9,639 bases of DNA from an uncultured Anaerolineae bacterium (GTDB lineage Bacteria; Chloroflexota; Anaerolineae; Anaerolineales; Villigracilaceae). Below, piece after piece: positions 247 through 9,639 of this stretch (position 1 is its first letter; every line of letters starts with the position of its first letter). The position numbers were made by a program, and so were the translations under genes. The notes beneath the pieces were generated by a model. The model was not told the origin of the DNA. It was given only the letters and a program-made list of their open reading frames with translations, and ran no database searches. The DNA lies in assembly GCA_903854805.1 (NCBI GenBank), contig CAINXK010000422.1:1-9639 (forward strand), in the 5' to 3' direction.

Positions 247-420
247 GGTTTTGAACCACGAACAGCACTCCCAAAACGAAGCCACAACAGGCTATCTGGA
301 TATTAATTGTCTTGGTAGCTTCTGATGATCAATGGCTGGCCCGTTCTAAATCGTCGTCAGATAAAAGGGCATTTCCCAATCACCGGTTCCATAGATGCAA
401 TGCTACTTTATGTTGTATCT
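247..420. other. Non-coding stretch with nothing recognised
   Basis: Neither strand holds a convincing reading frame with a ribosome binding site. No tRNA, clear terminator or repeat was seen before the 47-bp repeat that starts at 421. It may contain decayed gene sequence, but I could not recognise a family. Confidence 0.5.
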
Positions 421-467
421 CTTCAGGATTAACTTATATTACTGCCTTCAAAATTGACAATAATCTA
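421..467. repeat. 47-bp dispersed repeat, copy 1
   Basis: It begins CTTCAGGATTAACTT and ends GACAATAATCTA. It matches 2285-2331 at 46 of 47 positions (A at 436, G at 2300), in the same orientation. Similarity stops at 467/468, about 20 bp before the terminal-repeat-like end of the IS630 remnant. The second copy lies just downstream of the propeller lipoprotein gene, so this copy may mark the former 3' flank of a related gene or a small mobile repeat. Confidence 0.85.
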
Positions 468-3899: not shown

Positions 3900-4616
3900 T
3901 CAATACTCCCAATCCTCGTGCGCCAGGGGCGACTGGTTCAACTGGTCACGCAGATGACGCCAGTTGGGCATGAATTTGTCCATGGTTGCCACGAAGACGG
4001 CGTTGTGGCTTGGTTCGAGCAGGTGTGTCAGCTCGTGGACGATGACATATTCCAGGCAGGGCAACGGTTTTTTGGCCAGCTCCGTGTTCAGGCGAATGCT
4101 GCCAGTCTCCGGTTTGCAGCTGCCCCAATGGGTTTTCATGCGCTGGATAAAAATATGACCGGCTTTGACGCCCATGACCGGCTCCCATTTGGCGAAGATG
4201 GGCGCGGCTGCGCTGCGCAATTGCTCACGATACCAGGCCGAAAGAAGTTGCTCGCGTTTATCCTGATTTGTTCCGGGCCGGACGTACAACACAAGCTGGG
4301 TGTGATTGATTTCCACCTGTGGCGGCAGGTTGCCTTCCACCAGGTGCAGCAGGTAGCGCCGTCCCCAATGGTAATGGCTTTCACGCTCAATATACTCTCG
4401 CGGCGCCTCACGTTCCTGGGCCAGAAGAATTTTCTGCTGTTTCTTGATCCAATCCAGCCTGGAGATGGCATATAGCCGGATGGTTTCAAGGTTCATGTGC
4501 GCCGGTGCCGCGATCCGCACCCGGCCATTTGGCGGATAAACGCTCAGGTGCACGTTCTTGATTTCCTTGAAAACCACCTCAATCTCAATTTCGCCAATCA
4601 TAAGTGGCTGCGACAT
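3900..4616 (-). CDS. YgjP-type (DUF45) zinc metallopeptidase of the restriction operon
   Basis: The product is 238 aa from the ATG at 4616, which overlaps the hsdR stop as TGATG. An upstream in-frame TTG at 4619 is a less likely start. The zinc-binding signature HELTH (residues 194-198) with a third ligand His204 in EPSHN fits the HExxH...H layout of the YgjP/SprT-like family, and the preceding THWGSC (163-167) is the family's second hallmark. No signal peptide is seen, so it is cytoplasmic. Genes of this family commonly sit in type I restriction operons directly beside hsdR. Their role there is not settled; proteolytic control of the restriction complex is one idea, and I do not claim it here. 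The overlap with hsdR and the AAGGA site within the end of hsdR point to translational coupling and a fixed ratio with HsdR. Confidence 0.9.
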   Translation of the reverse strand: MSQPLMIGEIEIEVVFKEIKNVHLSVYPPNGRVRIAAPAHMNLETIRLYAISRLDWIKKQQKILLAQEREAPREYIERESHYHWGRRYLLHLVEGNLPPQVEINHTQLVLYVRPGTNQDKREQLLSAWYREQLRSAAAPIFAKWEPVMGVKAGHIFIQRMKTHWGSCKPETGSIRLNTELAKKPLPCLEYVIVHELTHLLEPSHNAVFVATMDKFMPNWRHLRDQLNQSPLAHEDWEY

Positions 4617-7600
4617 CAATATTCCTTTTGCGCCTCAACGATGCGGTACACCCGATCAACCTTTGACAGGTCATTCCCGAGCAGGGGGTAGATCGCTTTC
4701 TTGATAATATTCTCCTTAACCTGCACTCCACGGAAGTCATCCGGTTTGACCCGCCGGACTGCCTCATCAATCTGCAGTGCCAGCATCTCGTCCTGATCCA
4801 GGTTGCTCCACAGGGCGCGTTTGGCCGGCGTATCCAGGCTGGATGGGGTTTCCTGCGTGTGGCCGGCTTGAACCTGGCTGGCCAGCCCAGCAATCCGCTG
4901 CAGAAACTCTTCATACTTGATGGCGTTGGCGCGCAAATCGGCGATGATCTGATCCAGCAGGCTGGACATTTTGTCGTAAAAAGCCGGGTCGTTCAGGTGT
5001 TCTTTAATTATCTTGCGTCGTACATTGTTCTGGATGGTTTCGGCAATGGCACCCTTGTTGCCTTTCATCTCGCCCAGCCGGGTTGAGATCGCTTCGGCGA
5101 TGCCAATCTTGGTGATCAATTCCAGCAAACCAATGTTATCAAAGGGTGAGATCTTGCGCGGCTCGTCGGCCTCGATATAGGTGTCGATCAGGTGCCGCAT
5201 ATCGGCCTCGTAGGCCTTCAGGTCGAGGGTCTCGCCGCTGGCTTTGCGAATGATTTCGCGCAGGTTGGTGTAATGCTCCAGCTTGGTCTTGATGCGGTAG
5301 ACATCCCCGCTGGAATACCCAGCCTTATCCAGTTCATCAGAAATGTTGGCGTAGGCGCGCAGCAGGCTCACCGCGGACTTGTAGAGCTGCACCCGCTGGG
5401 GTTCGTGTTCCTGCAGATCGCTGGCGATCTCGGTGTTGCCGCAGAAATAGTGGATGTGTTCCAACTCGCCCCTGGGATGTTCGACCGGCTCACACAGCAG
5501 GTCGAGCGCTTCCAGTGCAGTGTCGAGTTGCTCCTTCCCTTTTTTCAGACGGTCCAGCAGCAGCACATCCGGATCGGCGCCCCCGGTACTGTGATCCAAC
5601 TCAGAAGTATAAACTTCAATCGCTTCTTCAACATTCGAGAAGAGGTCCTTGTAGTCCACAATATAACCAAAATCTTTGTCTTCGCCATCCAGACGGTTGA
5701 CGCGGCAGATAGCCTGAAAGAGGCCGTGATCCTGCATGGGTTTGTCAATGTAGAGATAGGTGCAGGGCGGCGCATCAAAACCGGTCAGGAGCTTGTCTAC
5801 TACGATCAACAGCTTCATGCTGGCAGGTTCCCGGGTAAAGAGCGCTTTGGCGCGTTCCTCGTAGGTTTCGGTTTCGGTCATACCGGGACGGGCTTCGACC
5901 CCTTCCAGCAGCTTCTTGTAAGTGGAATAGATAAACTGTTTCCGGGTTTCGGAGTGTTCCCCGGTTTCCTCGAGCGTGACATCGCCAATGTAGGGGTTGT
6001 AAGAGGTTACAACCGCGCAGCGATCCTTGAAGGGCGTCTTCTGGAACAGCTCAAAATACTTGCAAGCCTCATAGATACTGGACGCCACCAGGATGGCATT
6101 CCCGCGTTCGCTCGAAAGCCGCGGCTTGGTGCTGAAATCAAAAATGATGTCACTGACCACGCGCTCAATGCGAGATTTGGAGCTGAGCACATTCTGCAGG
6201 GTACTCCACTGCTTCTTAAGTTCGGCTTTTTGCCAGTCGTTCAGTCCCCTGGTTTTGGCTTCAAACCAGGCGTCGATCTTATTTTTTGAACCAAGGCGCT
6301 GATCAATATTCCGGGCCTCGTAAACCAGGTCGAGAATGATGCCGTCATCAACCCCCTCGCTGAACTTGTAGGTATGGATGTAGCCGCCAAAGACTTCCAG
6401 GCTGGTCTGTTTATCCTTCATCAGGAGCGGCGTGCCCGTGAAGCCGATGAAAACCGCGTTTGGCATGATGGCTTTCATGGCGCGGTGTAATTTTCCGCTT
6501 TGGCTGCGGTGACACTCATCCACAAAGACAAAAACTTCTCCGACCGTCTGGCTGGGCAGGTTTCCGAGTTCCTTGATGTAAGCCTCAAAGTCGTCCACGC
6601 CCTGCTTGCCAAACTTGTGAACCAGTGAGCACAGCAGGCGCGGGTGGGCCTGACCGAGCTGCTGCATCAGATCACGCCCACTGTTCGTGCGCTTGATCTG
6701 CTCTCCAGCTTCGCTGAAGACACGTTCGATCTGTTTGTCCAGTTCGTCCCGGTCTGTGATGATCGCGACCCGGGCCTGTGGATTGTTCTCCAGGATCCAT
6801 TTGGCCAGCAGCACCATCACAATGCTCTTGCCGCTGCCCTGTGTATGCCAGATGATGCCGCCGCGCTTCTCGCGAACGTGCTTTTGGGCGGCCTTGATGC
6901 CGAAATACTGGTGTGTGCGCGGCAGTTTCTTGATGCCATTATCGAACAGCACAAAGTCATGGATCAATTCCAGCAGGCGCGGCTTGTTGCACAGCTTGAG
7001 CAGGTATTTATCCAGCTTGTAGCGGTTGTTATCTTGCTCATCCTCTTTCCATTTAAGAAAGTATTTTTCTGGGGTCAGGATCGATCCATACTGCAAGCCT
7101 TCGCTGTCATTTCCGGCAAAGACAATCTGGACCGTGCTGAAGAACCAGGCGTTGAACTCGGGCTGCTGATTTGACAGGTTCTGCCGGATGCCGTCCCCTA
7201 TGCTGACTGAGCTTTTTTTTAGTTCAAGCACACCGATGGCCAGCCCGTTCAGATACAGCACCAGGTCAGGCCGGCGTTCATAATTGCCCTTCAGCGTGAC
7301 TTCTTCCGCAATGGCAAAGTCGTTCTTTTCCGGCTCGTCCCAGTTGACCAACCTGACAGTCTCGGTGACCTTGCCGGCCTCGGTCATGACCGGTACGCCA
7401 TAGCGCAGCAGGCTGTAGACGGCCTGATTGTTGCCATACAGTTTGCGGTTATGGTTATCCGCCTCACGATGCAGCTTGTTCAATGCCGCGCTAACCTGCG
7501 CCGGGTTGTACCCGGATTTCATCAGCCAGGCGGAAAGCTGATCTTCCCAAATATTGCTATTATCGTAATCGCTGCGGTCACCCAGATAGCGATACCCCAA

Positions 7601-7666
7601 TTCCTCGCGGAAGAGCTTGATAACGCGGTTCTGTGTCTGGCGTTCAGGTTGGCCGATGGGTGTCAT
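4616..7666 (-). CDS. hsdR: Type I restriction enzyme, R (endonuclease/translocase) subunit
   Basis: The 1016-aa product is full length for HsdR. The start is the ATG at 7666, ten bases after the upstream gene's stop, with the ribosome binding site AGAGGA. A longer in-frame start at 7759 would overlap the previous gene and add 31 residues with no HsdR character. The N-terminal nuclease domain shows the PD-(D/E)XK core as RPDLVLYLNG (Asp134) and LELKK (Glu148, Lys150). Superfamily 2 helicase motifs follow: Walker A TQGSGKS (275-281), DECH box (383-386), TGTP (410-413), LLTGFDAPP (626-634) and QAICRVNR (651-658). The C-terminal third is helical and would dock on the methylase core. HsdR hydrolyses ATP to pull DNA past the HsdM2-HsdS complex and cuts far from the recognition site. 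All visible key residues are intact, so the subunit is probably active. Confidence 0.97.
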   Translation of the reverse strand: MTPIGQPERQTQNRVIKLFREELGYRYLGDRSDYDNSNIWEDQLSAWLMKSGYNPAQVSAALNKLHREADNHNRKLYGNNQAVYSLLRYGVPVMTEAGKVTETVRLVNWDEPEKNDFAIAEEVTLKGNYERRPDLVLYLNGLAIGVLELKKSSVSIGDGIRQNLSNQQPEFNAWFFSTVQIVFAGNDSEGLQYGSILTPEKYFLKWKEDEQDNNRYKLDKYLLKLCNKPRLLELIHDFVLFDNGIKKLPRTHQYFGIKAAQKHVREKRGGIIWHTQGSGKSIVMVLLAKWILENNPQARVAIITDRDELDKQIERVFSEAGEQIKRTNSGRDLMQQLGQAHPRLLCSLVHKFGKQGVDDFEAYIKELGNLPSQTVGEVFVFVDECHRSQSGKLHRAMKAIMPNAVFIGFTGTPLLMKDKQTSLEVFGGYIHTYKFSEGVDDGIILDLVYEARNIDQRLGSKNKIDAWFEAKTRGLNDWQKAELKKQWSTLQNVLSSKSRIERVVSDIIFDFSTKPRLSSERGNAILVASSIYEACKYFELFQKTPFKDRCAVVTSYNPYIGDVTLEETGEHSETRKQFIYSTYKKLLEGVEARPGMTETETYEERAKALFTREPASMKLLIVVDKLLTGFDAPPCTYLYIDKPMQDHGLFQAICRVNRLDGEDKDFGYIVDYKDLFSNVEEAIEVYTSELDHSTGGADPDVLLLDRLKKGKEQLDTALEALDLLCEPVEHPRGELEHIHYFCGNTEIASDLQEHEPQRVQLYKSAVSLLRAYANISDELDKAGYSSGDVYRIKTKLEHYTNLREIIRKASGETLDLKAYEADMRHLIDTYIEADEPRKISPFDNIGLLELITKIGIAEAISTRLGEMKGNKGAIAETIQNNVRRKIIKEHLNDPAFYDKMSSLLDQIIADLRANAIKYEEFLQRIAGLASQVQAGHTQETPSSLDTPAKRALWSNLDQDEMLALQIDEAVRRVKPDDFRGVQVKENIIKKAIYPLLGNDLSKVDRVYRIVEAQKEY

Positions 7667-7676
7667 GCTTGTCCTC

Positions 7677-8687
7677 TTAAATATTGTACAACGCCTGGTA
7701 CCACGCAACCCACTGTTCAAGCGCGGGATCATGCAGCCCAGATGCGGCGGCAAGGACATCTGCGGATGTAAAGGTTGTAAACCCCGGGTTGTTATTGATC
7801 AACTCGCGGTATTGCTGCAGCGTTCCTTCAAGCTGTGTATTTGCGGGGTGCTTGACCACTGAAAACGTGACATGCTTGTATGGCTGTTGCTCATCATGTT
7901 CAATACTGAGCGCCATCAACTGGTTGCGCCACAATTGGTTCATGCCTTCCTTGAAGGGGCAATGCTGGTGGAGTGCATGATTTGCAAAAAACTCCTGGTT
8001 GGCTTCAGTGATCTTCCAATAATTATATTTGTTCACGTGATGGTAAAAGCAATAATCTTTATTTTGTAAAATTTCTATAAATGATCTGCTGCAATCATGG
8101 CCTGGTTTTTTGCTGTGGCTTTTGGCACCACCGCACAGTGTAAATTCTTTTTCTGTCAGTTTGTGCTCAATCATCCACAGGCACAGCTCGTTTTGGTGAT
8201 TATGGTAAGCGATGGCTATATCCGTATCGGTTCCGGTCATTTTGTTTTTGTCGTTCAGACTACCATAAGGCTCATCCCAAAATTCGATGCGATAACCATT
8301 GTCAAGCTGGGAGGTAGCCAGGCTGGCAAAATCAGGTTTTAGTTTGGAAAATACCTGGCTGGCTTCCGGGCTTTGCAGGATCGGAAGGAATAAATTAATA
8401 TTTGCAGCCTGAGAACTGGCAACATGGTTGAAGTACTTGTGAATATGGAATGGAAATTTTTGCAGGTGTTCCATAGCCATTGCAACAATGCCAGGGTAAA
8501 GCATCGGGAAAGTTTCCTTGTACTCAGCCGGAAACATGGTGTCATAAACAACATCACCCACGCACCCAGGCTCAAGGCTTATATTTTCCCACTTCCATTC
8601 GATCAGATGCACATACATATCAAACTGGAAGGGATTAAGCATCCCCGGCAGCTTATACTCTTTCCCGTTAATCGTATGTATTGCCAT
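7677..8687 (-). CDS. Uncharacterised PD-(D/E)XK-like nuclease with a four-cysteine region
   Basis: The product is 336 aa with no signal peptide or membrane segment. A nuclease-like core is visible: GTDTDIAIAYH (Asp154/Asp156), a short turn, then the strand LCLWMIEHKLTEKEF with Glu174-x-Lys176, matching the D...ExK pattern of restriction-endonuclease-fold enzymes. Four cysteines follow (185, 199, 213, 243), in FTLCGGAKS, HDCSRSF, DYCFYHH and QHCPFKEGMNQLWRNQ. They could hold a zinc ion or an iron-sulfur cluster. I recall similar 'IEHKLTE...CGG...CPF..G..QL.RNQ' patterns in putative restriction endonucleases labelled PGN_0703-like, but cannot confirm the family. The gene lies between hsdS and hsdR, its stop overlapping the hsdR ribosome binding site region, so it is made with the restriction system. 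Its own ribosome binding site (GGTGATGA) is weak. The base composition looks more AT-rich than hsdR. It could be an accessory nuclease or a passenger gene. Confidence 0.75.
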   Translation of the reverse strand: MAIHTINGKEYKLPGMLNPFQFDMYVHLIEWKWENISLEPGCVGDVVYDTMFPAEYKETFPMLYPGIVAMAMEHLQKFPFHIHKYFNHVASSQAANINLFLPILQSPEASQVFSKLKPDFASLATSQLDNGYRIEFWDEPYGSLNDKNKMTGTDTDIAIAYHNHQNELCLWMIEHKLTEKEFTLCGGAKSHSKKPGHDCSRSFIEILQNKDYCFYHHVNKYNYWKITEANQEFFANHALHQHCPFKEGMNQLWRNQLMALSIEHDEQQPYKHVTFSVVKHPANTQLEGTLQQYRELINNNPGFTTFTSADVLAAASGLHDPALEQWVAWYQALYNI

Positions 8688-8710: not shown

Positions 8711-8857
8711 ATTACCTGATTTATTGTCTTAACCGGGATTTGCTTGATTATCCTGATTTACCTGATTTTTGTCTTAACCGCGATTTGCTTGATTATCTTG
8801 ATTGACCTGATTTTAAAATCAAGCTAATCCTGTAATCCTTCCAATCAAGGTTAAGAC
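8711..8857. repeat. Repeat block A: two direct units and one inverted unit
   Basis: Unit 1 (8726-8770) and unit 2 (8771-8814) each begin GTCTTAACCG and end CCTGATTTT; a partial unit end precedes them (8711-8725). The third unit (8815-8857) runs in reverse, beginning AAAATCAA and ending GGTTAAGAC, so units 2 and 3 can fold into a hairpin of about 43-bp arms with several mismatches. Within a unit a 9-bp sub-pattern (roughly YTGATTWNC) recurs. The block follows the GxxExxY gene's stop codon by 7 bp on the minus strand. Block B at 9251-9403 has the same design and orientation. Confidence 0.9.
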
Positions 8858-8864
8858 ATCATGG

Positions 8865-9236
8865 TCAGATCTTATTATTATGCACTCTCTTAAATTGTAA
8901 ACTCTTTGCTCCAAAATTGATCAACAAACCAATCTTCATCTTGTAAGCCTCGAGATAATTGATTGCCTGCGCCAGATGCACATCTTCCAATTGAATGACA
9001 GCCTTCAATTCCACCATGATGACATTCTCGACAAAGAAATCCACCCGGCGCGTACCAATCTGTTGGCCTCGATAAAAGATTTCCATTTCCTTCTCGCGCT
9101 CAAACGCAAGATTGTGGAACGGCATTTCAATTTCCATGGCACGCTGGTAAATCACTTCTTGAAAGCCATTACCCAGCCCCGTATGGACCTTCATAGCCGC
9201 TGCGATGATACGACTGGTCAATTCTTCATGTTCCAT
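8865..9236 (-). CDS. GxxExxY family protein
   Basis: The product is 123 aa from the ATG at 9236; a GTG one codon upstream is an alternative start and the ribosome binding site is poor (GGTGGTG). The name-giving motif is GFQEVIY (residues 24-30), within the conserved HTGLGNGFQEVIYQRAME. Further family features are YRGQQIGTRRVDFFVEN and VELKA, giving Asp66, Glu76 and Lys78, the D...ExK spacing of the PD-(D/E)XK nuclease fold, followed by AQAINYLEAYK and LLINFGAKSLQFKRV near the C-terminus. The length is normal for the family (about 120-130 aa). Its biochemical role is not known; nuclease activity is inferred from motifs. The gene is bracketed by repeat blocks A and B and sits inside a type I restriction operon, which fits insertion of a mobile repeat-gene cassette. 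Confidence 0.92.
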   Translation of the reverse strand: MEHEELTSRIIAAAMKVHTGLGNGFQEVIYQRAMEIEMPFHNLAFEREKEMEIFYRGQQIGTRRVDFFVENVIMVELKAVIQLEDVHLAQAINYLEAYKMKIGLLINFGAKSLQFKRVHNNKI

Positions 9237-9250
9237 CACACCACCATAAC

Positions 9251-9403
9251 CTTGATTTACCTGATTTTTTGTCTTAACCGGGATTTGCTTGATTATCTTG
9301 ATTGACCTGATTTTCTGTCTTAACCGCGATTTGCTTGATTATCCTGATTTACCTGATTTTAAAATCAAGGTAATCCTGTAATCTTTAAAATCAAGGTTAA
9401 GAC
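9251..9403. repeat. Repeat block B: two direct units and one inverted unit
   Basis: A partial unit end (9251-9270) is followed by unit 1 (9271-9316), unit 2 (9317-9360) and an inverted unit (9361-9403), the same order and orientation as block A. Units 2 and 3 meet at TTTTAAAA and can form a long imperfect hairpin. The outer seven bases of the inverted unit include the stop codon of hsdS (9397-9399), so the repeat reaches into the coding sequence. Block A and block B are about 0.5 kb apart and enclose only the GxxExxY gene. Confidence 0.9.
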
Positions 9404-9639
9404 ACCAACCTCACCTTCCCCGTCAACAACTCCTGCATCATCCCGGCCTTTACCGCTCGCGCCTTGGACAGTTTGCCCTCCAGCGCCGCGATCTCTTTAT
9501 CCATGTCACTCAGGATTTCCGCGATGGCGGTTTGTTCGGCAATTGTCGCCGGTGTCTTATATACAAAATTCACGAAATCTTTTTGGTAAAGATGATTGAT
9601 GGTTGAACCTGCGCTTAACTGACCAAGAAACTCGATAAA
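9397..9639 (-). CDS. hsdS: Type I restriction enzyme specificity subunit, C-terminal part
   Basis: Eighty codons to the stop are in the window; the gene continues to the right. The segment EQTAIAEILSDMDKEIAALE (about 35-54 in the visible part) followed by KLSKARAVKAGMMQELLTGKVRL is the standard end of HsdS: the second conserved coiled-coil region and the 'K.GMMQ.LLTGK.RL' tail. The upstream visible residues (SAGSTINHLYQKDF..F) are the end of the second target recognition domain. HsdS reads the split DNA target and bridges two HsdM subunits and HsdR. The final codons VS-stop lie in the last bases of repeat block B, so the repeat may have replaced the original few C-terminal residues. The DNA target cannot be judged from this fragment. 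Confidence 0.95.
   Translation of the reverse strand, partial: FIEFLGQLSAGSTINHLYQKDFVNFVYKTPATIAEQTAIAEILSDMDKEIAALEGKLSKARAVKAGMMQELLTGKVRLVS

What the first reader, a model, noticed from the sequence alone, without database searches (positions are those of the whole stretch)
8711..9403. Repeat-GxxExxY-repeat cassette inserted between hsdS and the rest of the operon
The GxxExxY gene is enclosed by two blocks of the same design (two direct units plus one inverted unit, same orientation). This arrangement suggests a small non-autonomous mobile cassette, or a gene duplicated and moved by recombination between repeats. The GxxExxY family has nuclease-like motifs, so it could act on its own repeats. 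The sequence shows the arrangement; mobility is inference.
Basis: partly seen in the sequence, partly recalled or inferred. Interest (0 to 1): 0.7.

Follow-up and report, generated by a model that had tools for sequence, protein, structure and literature searches.

The report
Nuclease gene between matching DNA hairpins
A small bacterial nuclease gene sits between matching DNA hairpins in a unit that slipped into a restriction operon, and the same gene-plus-hairpin partnership recurs with matched hairpin types in many bacteria, hinting at an undescribed kind of mobile repeat system.

Summary
Window 8711-9404 is a GxxExxY gene (8865-9239, minus strand) between two 92%-alike blocks, each two direct units plus one inverted unit; the last pair forms an 89-nt hairpin with ends TGTCTTAACC/GGTTAAGACA. 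Two relatives' operons (G454, G436) lack the segment: there the hsdS tail overlaps the next gene by 4 bp. In the window hsdS ends on a TAA inside the hairpin end. In another genus a 451-bp hairpin-GxxExxY-hairpin unit is present in four species, decayed in one, absent in three more distant ones. Of 103 GxxExxY genes sampled from Bacteroidota and Anaerolineae, 83 carry one of two hairpin motif classes (reversed-flank control 4 of 103; PIN genes 3 of 27), and the class follows the protein tree. Solo hairpins are dispersed and enriched in genomes holding GxxExxY. The protein keeps the PD-(D/E)XK catalytic residues and a Cas4/RecB-like fold. Best reading: a REP/RAYT-like partnership built on an unrelated nuclease. 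Gain of the unit is well supported; nuclease action on the hairpins is inferred. Against: no target duplication found, and four-helix-bundle genes (11 of 26) show analogous repeats of other motifs without being nucleases.

The parts
8711..8724 (-). truncated repeat unit at the inner-operon end of the left block
   Evidence: (family D1)
8725..8769 (-). direct repeat unit 1 of left block (TGTCTTAACC end on + strand)
8770..8858 (.). 89-nt hairpin of left block: direct unit 8770-8814 plus inverted unit 8815-8858, perfect 10-bp ends TGTCTTAACC/GGTTAAGACA
   Evidence: DNA z -4.28; RNA z -6.22
8865..9239 (-). GxxExxY gene, 124 aa, PD-(D/E)XK nuclease family; invariant E28, D67, E77, K79, Q91, Y95 in a 46-sequence alignment
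9248..9269 (-). truncated repeat unit abutting the 5' side of the GxxExxY gene
9270..9315 (-). direct repeat unit of right block
9316..9404 (.). 89-nt hairpin of right block, same ends
   Evidence: DNA z -6.16; RNA z -7.42
9397..9639 (-). 3' end of hsdS; its stop TAA (9397-9399) lies within the hairpin end 9395-9404
7677..8687 (-). PDDEXK_13/REase-ARP gene; in relatives L305 and L307 its ATG overlaps the hsdS-tail stop by 4 bp (no cassette)
4616..7759 (-). hsdR of the same operon

Best explanation
The segment is a hairpin-bounded gene cassette, gained by insertion at the hsdS stop / next-gene start junction of a type I restriction operon, and one member of a large family in which a GxxExxY nuclease gene and a cognate palindromic repeat form a REP/RAYT-like partnership. 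Shown: matched hairpins at both ends, clean absence in relatives, dispersed solo hairpins, and hairpin type that follows the protein tree even inside one genome. Inferred: the GxxExxY protein recognises its own hairpin (as extruded cruciform or single strand), cuts it, and so lets host repair or replication copy hairpin units, and now and then hairpin-gene-hairpin, to gene junctions where the hairpin end supplies a new stop codon and the operon survives.
For: Empty sites: window operon L305, L307; genus of G040, present 4, decayed 1, absent 3 of 8 species; ruvX locus, 19 of 41 loci with the gene, 13 short gaps without it, one of these with a solo hairpin. Flanks: 83 of 103 GxxExxY genes with motif class A or B, against 4 of 103 reversed flanks and 3 of 27 PIN genes; class-free up/down flank similarity 68 of 98 against 2 of 27 PIN. 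Specificity: hairpin class on the protein tree needs 9 (A) and 18 (B) changes against 24.1 and 34.5 shuffled, 0 of 500 each; six genomes hold both classes, each at its own gene subfamily. Dependence: class B hairpins in 22 of 29 Bacteroidota genomes with GxxExxY (191 copies) against 5 of 32 without (10 copies), reversed-pattern control 13 copies in 61 genomes; weaker in Anaerolineae, 29 of 35 (413 copies) against 13 of 25 (55 copies), Fisher p 0.02. Class A hairpins: 0 of 59 drawn Anaerolineae genomes although 34 of them hold GxxExxY. Enzyme: catalytic residues invariant, confident model (pLDDT 94.8), nuclease folds as nearest structures.
Against: No direct evidence that the protein binds or cuts the hairpins. 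No target-site duplication (42 end pairs). Four-helix-bundle genes (PF05635), not nucleases, also show shared flanking repeats of other motifs in 11 of 26 loci, so a nuclease may not be what such cassettes need. 13 of 25 Anaerolineae genomes without a GxxExxY hit still hold class B hairpins, and G003 and G010 hold class A hairpins while no class A gene was among the genes looked at there; gaps in these assemblies or gene loss could explain it, unproven. Seventy-two of 97 pattern loci are solo repeats. The match between a genome's dispersed heptads and its own gene's flank is modest (p 0.034, 11 genomes).
Confidence: 0.5

Rival explanations
1. Passive cassette: the hairpins are a mobile repeat spread by some other machinery in trans, and GxxExxY is a passenger carried between two of them, kept for another job (for example next to restriction systems).
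For: PF05635 genes show an analogous arrangement with other motifs. LRR-type genes follow the repeat directly in several Anaerolineae loci (6 of 9 loci examined). Class A gene cassettes, but not solo repeats, sit by type I restriction genes: 10 of 25 pattern loci with GxxExxY against 0 of 72 without.
Against: A passenger should not have a hairpin class that follows its own phylogeny and differs between subfamilies within one genome, nor predict hairpin load genome-wide.
Confidence: 0.25
2. The hairpins are RNA-level elements (processing, stability or insulation) that let a small extra gene be tolerated inside an operon; their similarity at both ends is a functional need and their spread is by ordinary recombination and horizontal transfer of operons.
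For: Very stable RNA hairpins; the upstream neighbour is on the same strand in 22 of 24 (class A) and 46 of 57 (class B) loci; the hairpin abuts the start codon in several loci.
Against: Solo hairpins are gained and lost at sites without the gene and are dispersed; PIN genes in the same genomes do not carry them.
Confidence: 0.15
3. Gene duplication and movement by homologous recombination between dispersed repeats, without any dedicated enzyme.
For: Repeats are dispersed; the GxxExxY copy in G547 carries an extra divergent segment at the same site; in G006 an hsdS-tail fragment lies next to the cassette.
Against: Empty sites hold no resident repeat (L305, L265, L282, G549), so there is no homology to recombine with at the target.
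Confidence: 0.1

Closest known systems
REP/REPIN sequences with RAYT (TnpA_REP) transposases
   Same: Small nuclease gene flanked by palindromes that are also dispersed as solo copies; repeat type and enzyme co-vary; rarely on plasmids (PMC8049555 and PMC3733652, passages seen).
   Different: RAYT is a Y1 (HUH) enzyme acting at GTAG-tagged REPs (PMC8266576, passages seen); here a PD-(D/E)XK nuclease, no GTAG or CGTC tag in the window hairpins, hairpins of 9-12 nt periodic words with TTAACC/TGAACC ends.
TIRYT/TIRtrons and MITEs
   Same: Terminal inverted repeats bounding a gene or alone.
   Different: No tyrosine or DDE transposase here, no target-site duplication found.
GxxExxY family (TIGR04256, PF13366)
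   Same: The gene is a full member.
   Different: The flanking-hairpin association is not described in the papers I could find.
TAACTGA direct repeats of Beggiatoaceae, Cyanobacteria and Bacteroidetes (PMC4679880, abstract and passages seen)
   Same: Short periodic repeats just upstream of start codons, suspected to be mobile.
   Different: Another heptamer; such words occur beside a PF05635 gene in L371, not beside GxxExxY here.

Membership tests
GxxExxY (TIGR04256 / PF13366) | profile score above curated cut-off | tested here: met
   133.5 bits against 35; 129.2 against 22
PD-(D/E)XK nuclease superfamily | D ... E-x-K catalytic residues conserved | tested here: met
   D67, E77, K79 (plus E28, Q91, Y95) invariant in 46 sequences
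PD-(D/E)XK nuclease superfamily | core fold | tested here: met
REP/RAYT system | Y1 (HUH) tyrosine transposase | tested here: not met
   the enclosed gene is PD-(D/E)XK
REP/RAYT system | GTAG or CGTC tag at the palindrome | tested here: not met
   absent on reading 8770-8858 and 9316-9404
REP/RAYT system | gene flanked by palindromes that also occur dispersed | tested here: met
   in relatives; the window's own genome is not held
REP/RAYT system | enzyme cleaves cognate single-stranded repeat | not testable with these tools
   needs biochemistry
MITE / TIR transposon | terminal inverted repeats | tested here: met
   10-bp perfect ends
MITE / TIR transposon | target-site duplication | tested here: inconclusive
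   42 end pairs, 54 offset/length combinations, best z 2.75
23S rRNA intervening-sequence protein (PF05635) cassettes | PF05635 gene | tested here: not met
   GxxExxY gene instead

The most novel reading that the evidence does not exclude
GxxExxY proteins and their TTAACC/TGAACC-ended periodic hairpins are an independent class of bacterial repeat-propagation system, equivalent in logic to RAYT/REP but built on a PD-(D/E)XK nuclease, with at least two hairpin dialects matched to enzyme subfamilies, spread across phyla and inserting at stop-start junctions of operons.
Probability: 0.4. Interest if true: 0.9.

Novelty: new variant of a known kind. Interest (0 to 1): 0.75.

Why it matters
GxxExxY is a very large protein family without a known function (over 7,998 relatives in a capped search). 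A matched hairpin gives a first concrete substrate to test, and would explain short-period intergenic hairpins seen in many Bacteroidota and Chloroflexota genomes. It would also add a second, unrelated enzyme to the rare group of chromosomal systems that maintain dispersed palindromes, and shows how such units can enter compact operons by bringing their own stop codon.

Tried and rejected
Own-genome test: no genome is held for the window. Rfam: no match up to E 0.5 in the window. Viral origin: repeat core not in viral contigs, no confirmed relative among 10 candidate stretches there, no match in 50,697 phage records, 8 of 72,556 plasmid records. A single other gene family behind the solo repeats: Pfam scan of 70 chosen nearby ORFs (of 130 listed) gave 92 families, none in more than 2 members. 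Target-site duplication: none convincing. PF05635 as a neutral control failed as neutral: 0 of 26 with class A/B motifs, but 11 of 26 with other shared repeats; my choice of the central ORF in these and the PIN loci was approximate (26 of 30 and 27 of 30 loci used). The type I restriction count used query proteins taken partly from class A loci (L105, L125, L200) and so leans towards class A; the Pfam counts (49 of 50 and 85 of 111 neighbour ORFs, top 25 families shown) point the same way. Motif classes A and B were defined after looking at flanks; the reversed-flank and PIN counts are the controls. The 14 genomes were picked by me, 10 of them because their locus already held GxxExxY. Foldseek against the PDB could not be run.

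Papers: PMC8049555, PMC8266576, PMC3733652: passages seen; PMC4679880: abstract and passages; PMC8934634 and PMC12085832: one passage each, unrelated; PMC6006769: listing only. The library holds open-licence papers only, so absence there is not absence in print.

Full report
1. What is there. The window is a type I restriction operon read on the minus strand: hsdS (3' end, 9397-9639), then the cassette, then a PDDEXK_13/REase-ARP gene (7677-8687), hsdR (4616-7759) and a YgjP-like gene (3900-4619). The cassette is GxxExxY (8865-9239) between two blocks of the same design. Each block holds a truncated unit, two direct units and an inverted unit; the last pair makes an 89-nt imperfect hairpin (8770-8858 and 9316-9404) with perfect 10-bp ends. 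Both hairpins fold better than all of 200 shuffles as DNA and as RNA. The gene's stop is 7 bp from the left hairpin, and the hsdS stop TAA lies inside the right hairpin end.

2. The repeat and the gene go together. A scan of about 85,000 species genomes for the 18-base core of the repeat, blind to genes, gave 97 stretches, mostly by title from Anaerolineae and Bacteroidota, with some from Thioploca, Fibrobacter, Ignavibacteria and others. Twenty-five of the 97 hold a GxxExxY gene, and in all 25 it lies within 0-343 bp of a repeat; 72 are solo repeats or cut short by contig ends. All 14 repeat-holding genomes that I searched hold GxxExxY genes, 1 to 17 each; I had picked 10 of the 14 because the gene was near, the other four also hold it. 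The base rate is 29 of 61 genomes in one sample (phylum of G013) and 35 of 60 in another (class of G002).

3. It is general. In 103 GxxExxY genes from these samples (frames over 240 aa and duplicates dropped), 26 have AATC-type (class A) and 57 have CRCRRAK-type (class B) periodic words within 250 bp; 20 have neither by these patterns, although several of those show other hairpins by eye. Reversed flanks give 1 A and 3 B of 103; PIN-domain genes of the same 14 genomes give 3 B of 27. Without motifs, upstream and downstream flanks resemble each other beyond the 99% level of mismatched control pairs in 68 of 98 GxxExxY loci, 2 of 27 PIN loci, and 11 of 26 PF05635 loci; with a stricter null made of GxxExxY flanks themselves the first count is 57 of 99. 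Both classes often start TTAACC or TGAACC and end GGTTAA or GGTTCA.

4. Hairpin class follows the protein. On a tree of 104 proteins class A needs 9 changes (shuffled mean 24.1) and class B 18 (34.5), 0 of 500 shuffles as low in either case; the window lies in a supported set of 25 proteins of which 21 are class A, 4 unassigned and none class B. The tree has few columns, so many forks are open. Six genomes (G002, G005, G006, G009, G011, G013) hold genes of both classes, each with its own hairpin type, which a genome-wide composition effect cannot explain.

5. Solo hairpins and their dependence on the gene. Class B hairpin starts were found in 22 of 29 genomes with GxxExxY (191 copies) and 5 of 32 without (10 copies); the backwards control pattern gave 13 in all 61 (Fisher 2.4e-6). 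In Anaerolineae the contrast is weaker: 29 of 35 (413 copies) against 13 of 25 (55 copies), control 12 copies (Fisher 0.02). Class A hairpins were absent from all 59 drawn Anaerolineae genomes, 34 of which hold GxxExxY, and present in the nine preselected ones; in seven of these nine a class A type gene was seen (in G007 with an internal stop), in G003 and G010 not among the genes looked at. Related genomes are not independent, and many are draft bins.

6. Gain of the unit. Window operon: among 396 Anaerolineae genomes four hold a close REase-ARP relative (8 any match). In L305 and L307 the hsdS tail (..LLTGRVRLV..LLTGRTRLV) ends in a TGA that overlaps the REase-ARP ATG by 4 bp, with no cassette; in L305 the piece before the tail reads as hsdM, so that operon is itself rearranged, and in L307 a solo palindrome lies about 100 bp upstream. 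In L306 a GxxExxY 90% identical to the window's follows REase-ARP and a fragment of an hsdS tail. Second locus: in the genus of G040 (8 species) a 451-bp unit is present in G040, G068, G550 and G547 (450-544 bp), decayed to hairpin ends in G052, and replaced by 26-28 bp in G549, G551 and G548; the three empty species are more distant (68-74% DNA identity) than the others (86-88%), so a gain on the inner branch is the simplest reading. In the filled genomes the upstream gene ends on the TGA of the hairpin end; in G549 the two genes overlap as ATGA, in G551 and G548 they lie 2-3 bp apart. A nearby solo hairpin shows the same presence and absence, with a different palindrome at that place in G550. 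Third locus: ruvX in Mucilaginibacter. Of 41 loci read (L107 and 40 that I chose from a table of 80 genomes), 19 hold GxxExxY (12 along ruvX, 7 against it), 13 have a short gap of 5-313 bp without it, one of them a solo hairpin (L293) and one a right-end remnant (L289), 8 have longer gaps with content I did not study, and one was incomplete.

7. Class A cassettes and restriction operons. Type I restriction proteins were found in 10 of 26 class A loci against 0 of 56 class B loci, 2 of 30 PIN loci and 0 of 30 PF05635 loci; among pattern-fetched loci, 10 of 25 with GxxExxY against 0 of 72 without (queries partly from class A loci). Solo class A repeats thus do not aim at restriction genes; the gene-bearing cassette either is useful there or travels between phyla with these operons.

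9. Reading. A chromosomal nuclease gene bounded by palindromes that are also dispersed, with enzyme and palindrome type matched, is the pattern that led to the REP/RAYT model (PMC8049555, PMC3733652, passages). It is not a REP/RAYT member: the enzyme is of another superfamily and the GTAG tag is missing. I think it most likely (0.5) that GxxExxY processes its own hairpins; that the segment is a gained cassette I hold at about 0.9. The main warning is PF05635: a non-nuclease family with similar repeat flanks of other motifs, which suggests a wider class of repeat-flanked small genes and leaves room for another mover.

Noticed in passing
L345-L374, e.g. L359, L366, L371: Four-helix-bundle (PF05635) genes show shared up/down periodic repeats of other motifs in 11 of 26 loci, including TAACTGA-like words in L371; a possible parallel cassette family.
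   Followed up: partly
L010, L017, L037, L067, L097, L108: Class A repeats directly upstream of genes whose product starts like M..AEKKI, an LRR-type protein (regex, 6 of 9 loci examined).
   Followed up: partly
G040:C9:91044, G068:C1:72354, G052:C22:338277; G080, G096, G113, G122, G128: GxxExxY domains inside 883-aa frames, and about 270-300-aa frames holding two GxxExxY domains in tandem.
   Followed up: no
window 405-467 and 2269-2331: 63-nt direct repeat, 89% identical, beside the small lipoprotein-like genes (family D4).
   Followed up: no
L328 (G550), at the place of the solo hairpin of L313 6430-6515: A different palindrome (CCTGACAGGTT..AACCTGTCAGG) occupies the site where sister species carry the class B solo hairpin.
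   Followed up: no
G114: 107 copies of a CGCGAAT variant of the class B hairpin in a 3.2 Mb genome, matching the flank of its own GxxExxY gene L215.
   Followed up: partly
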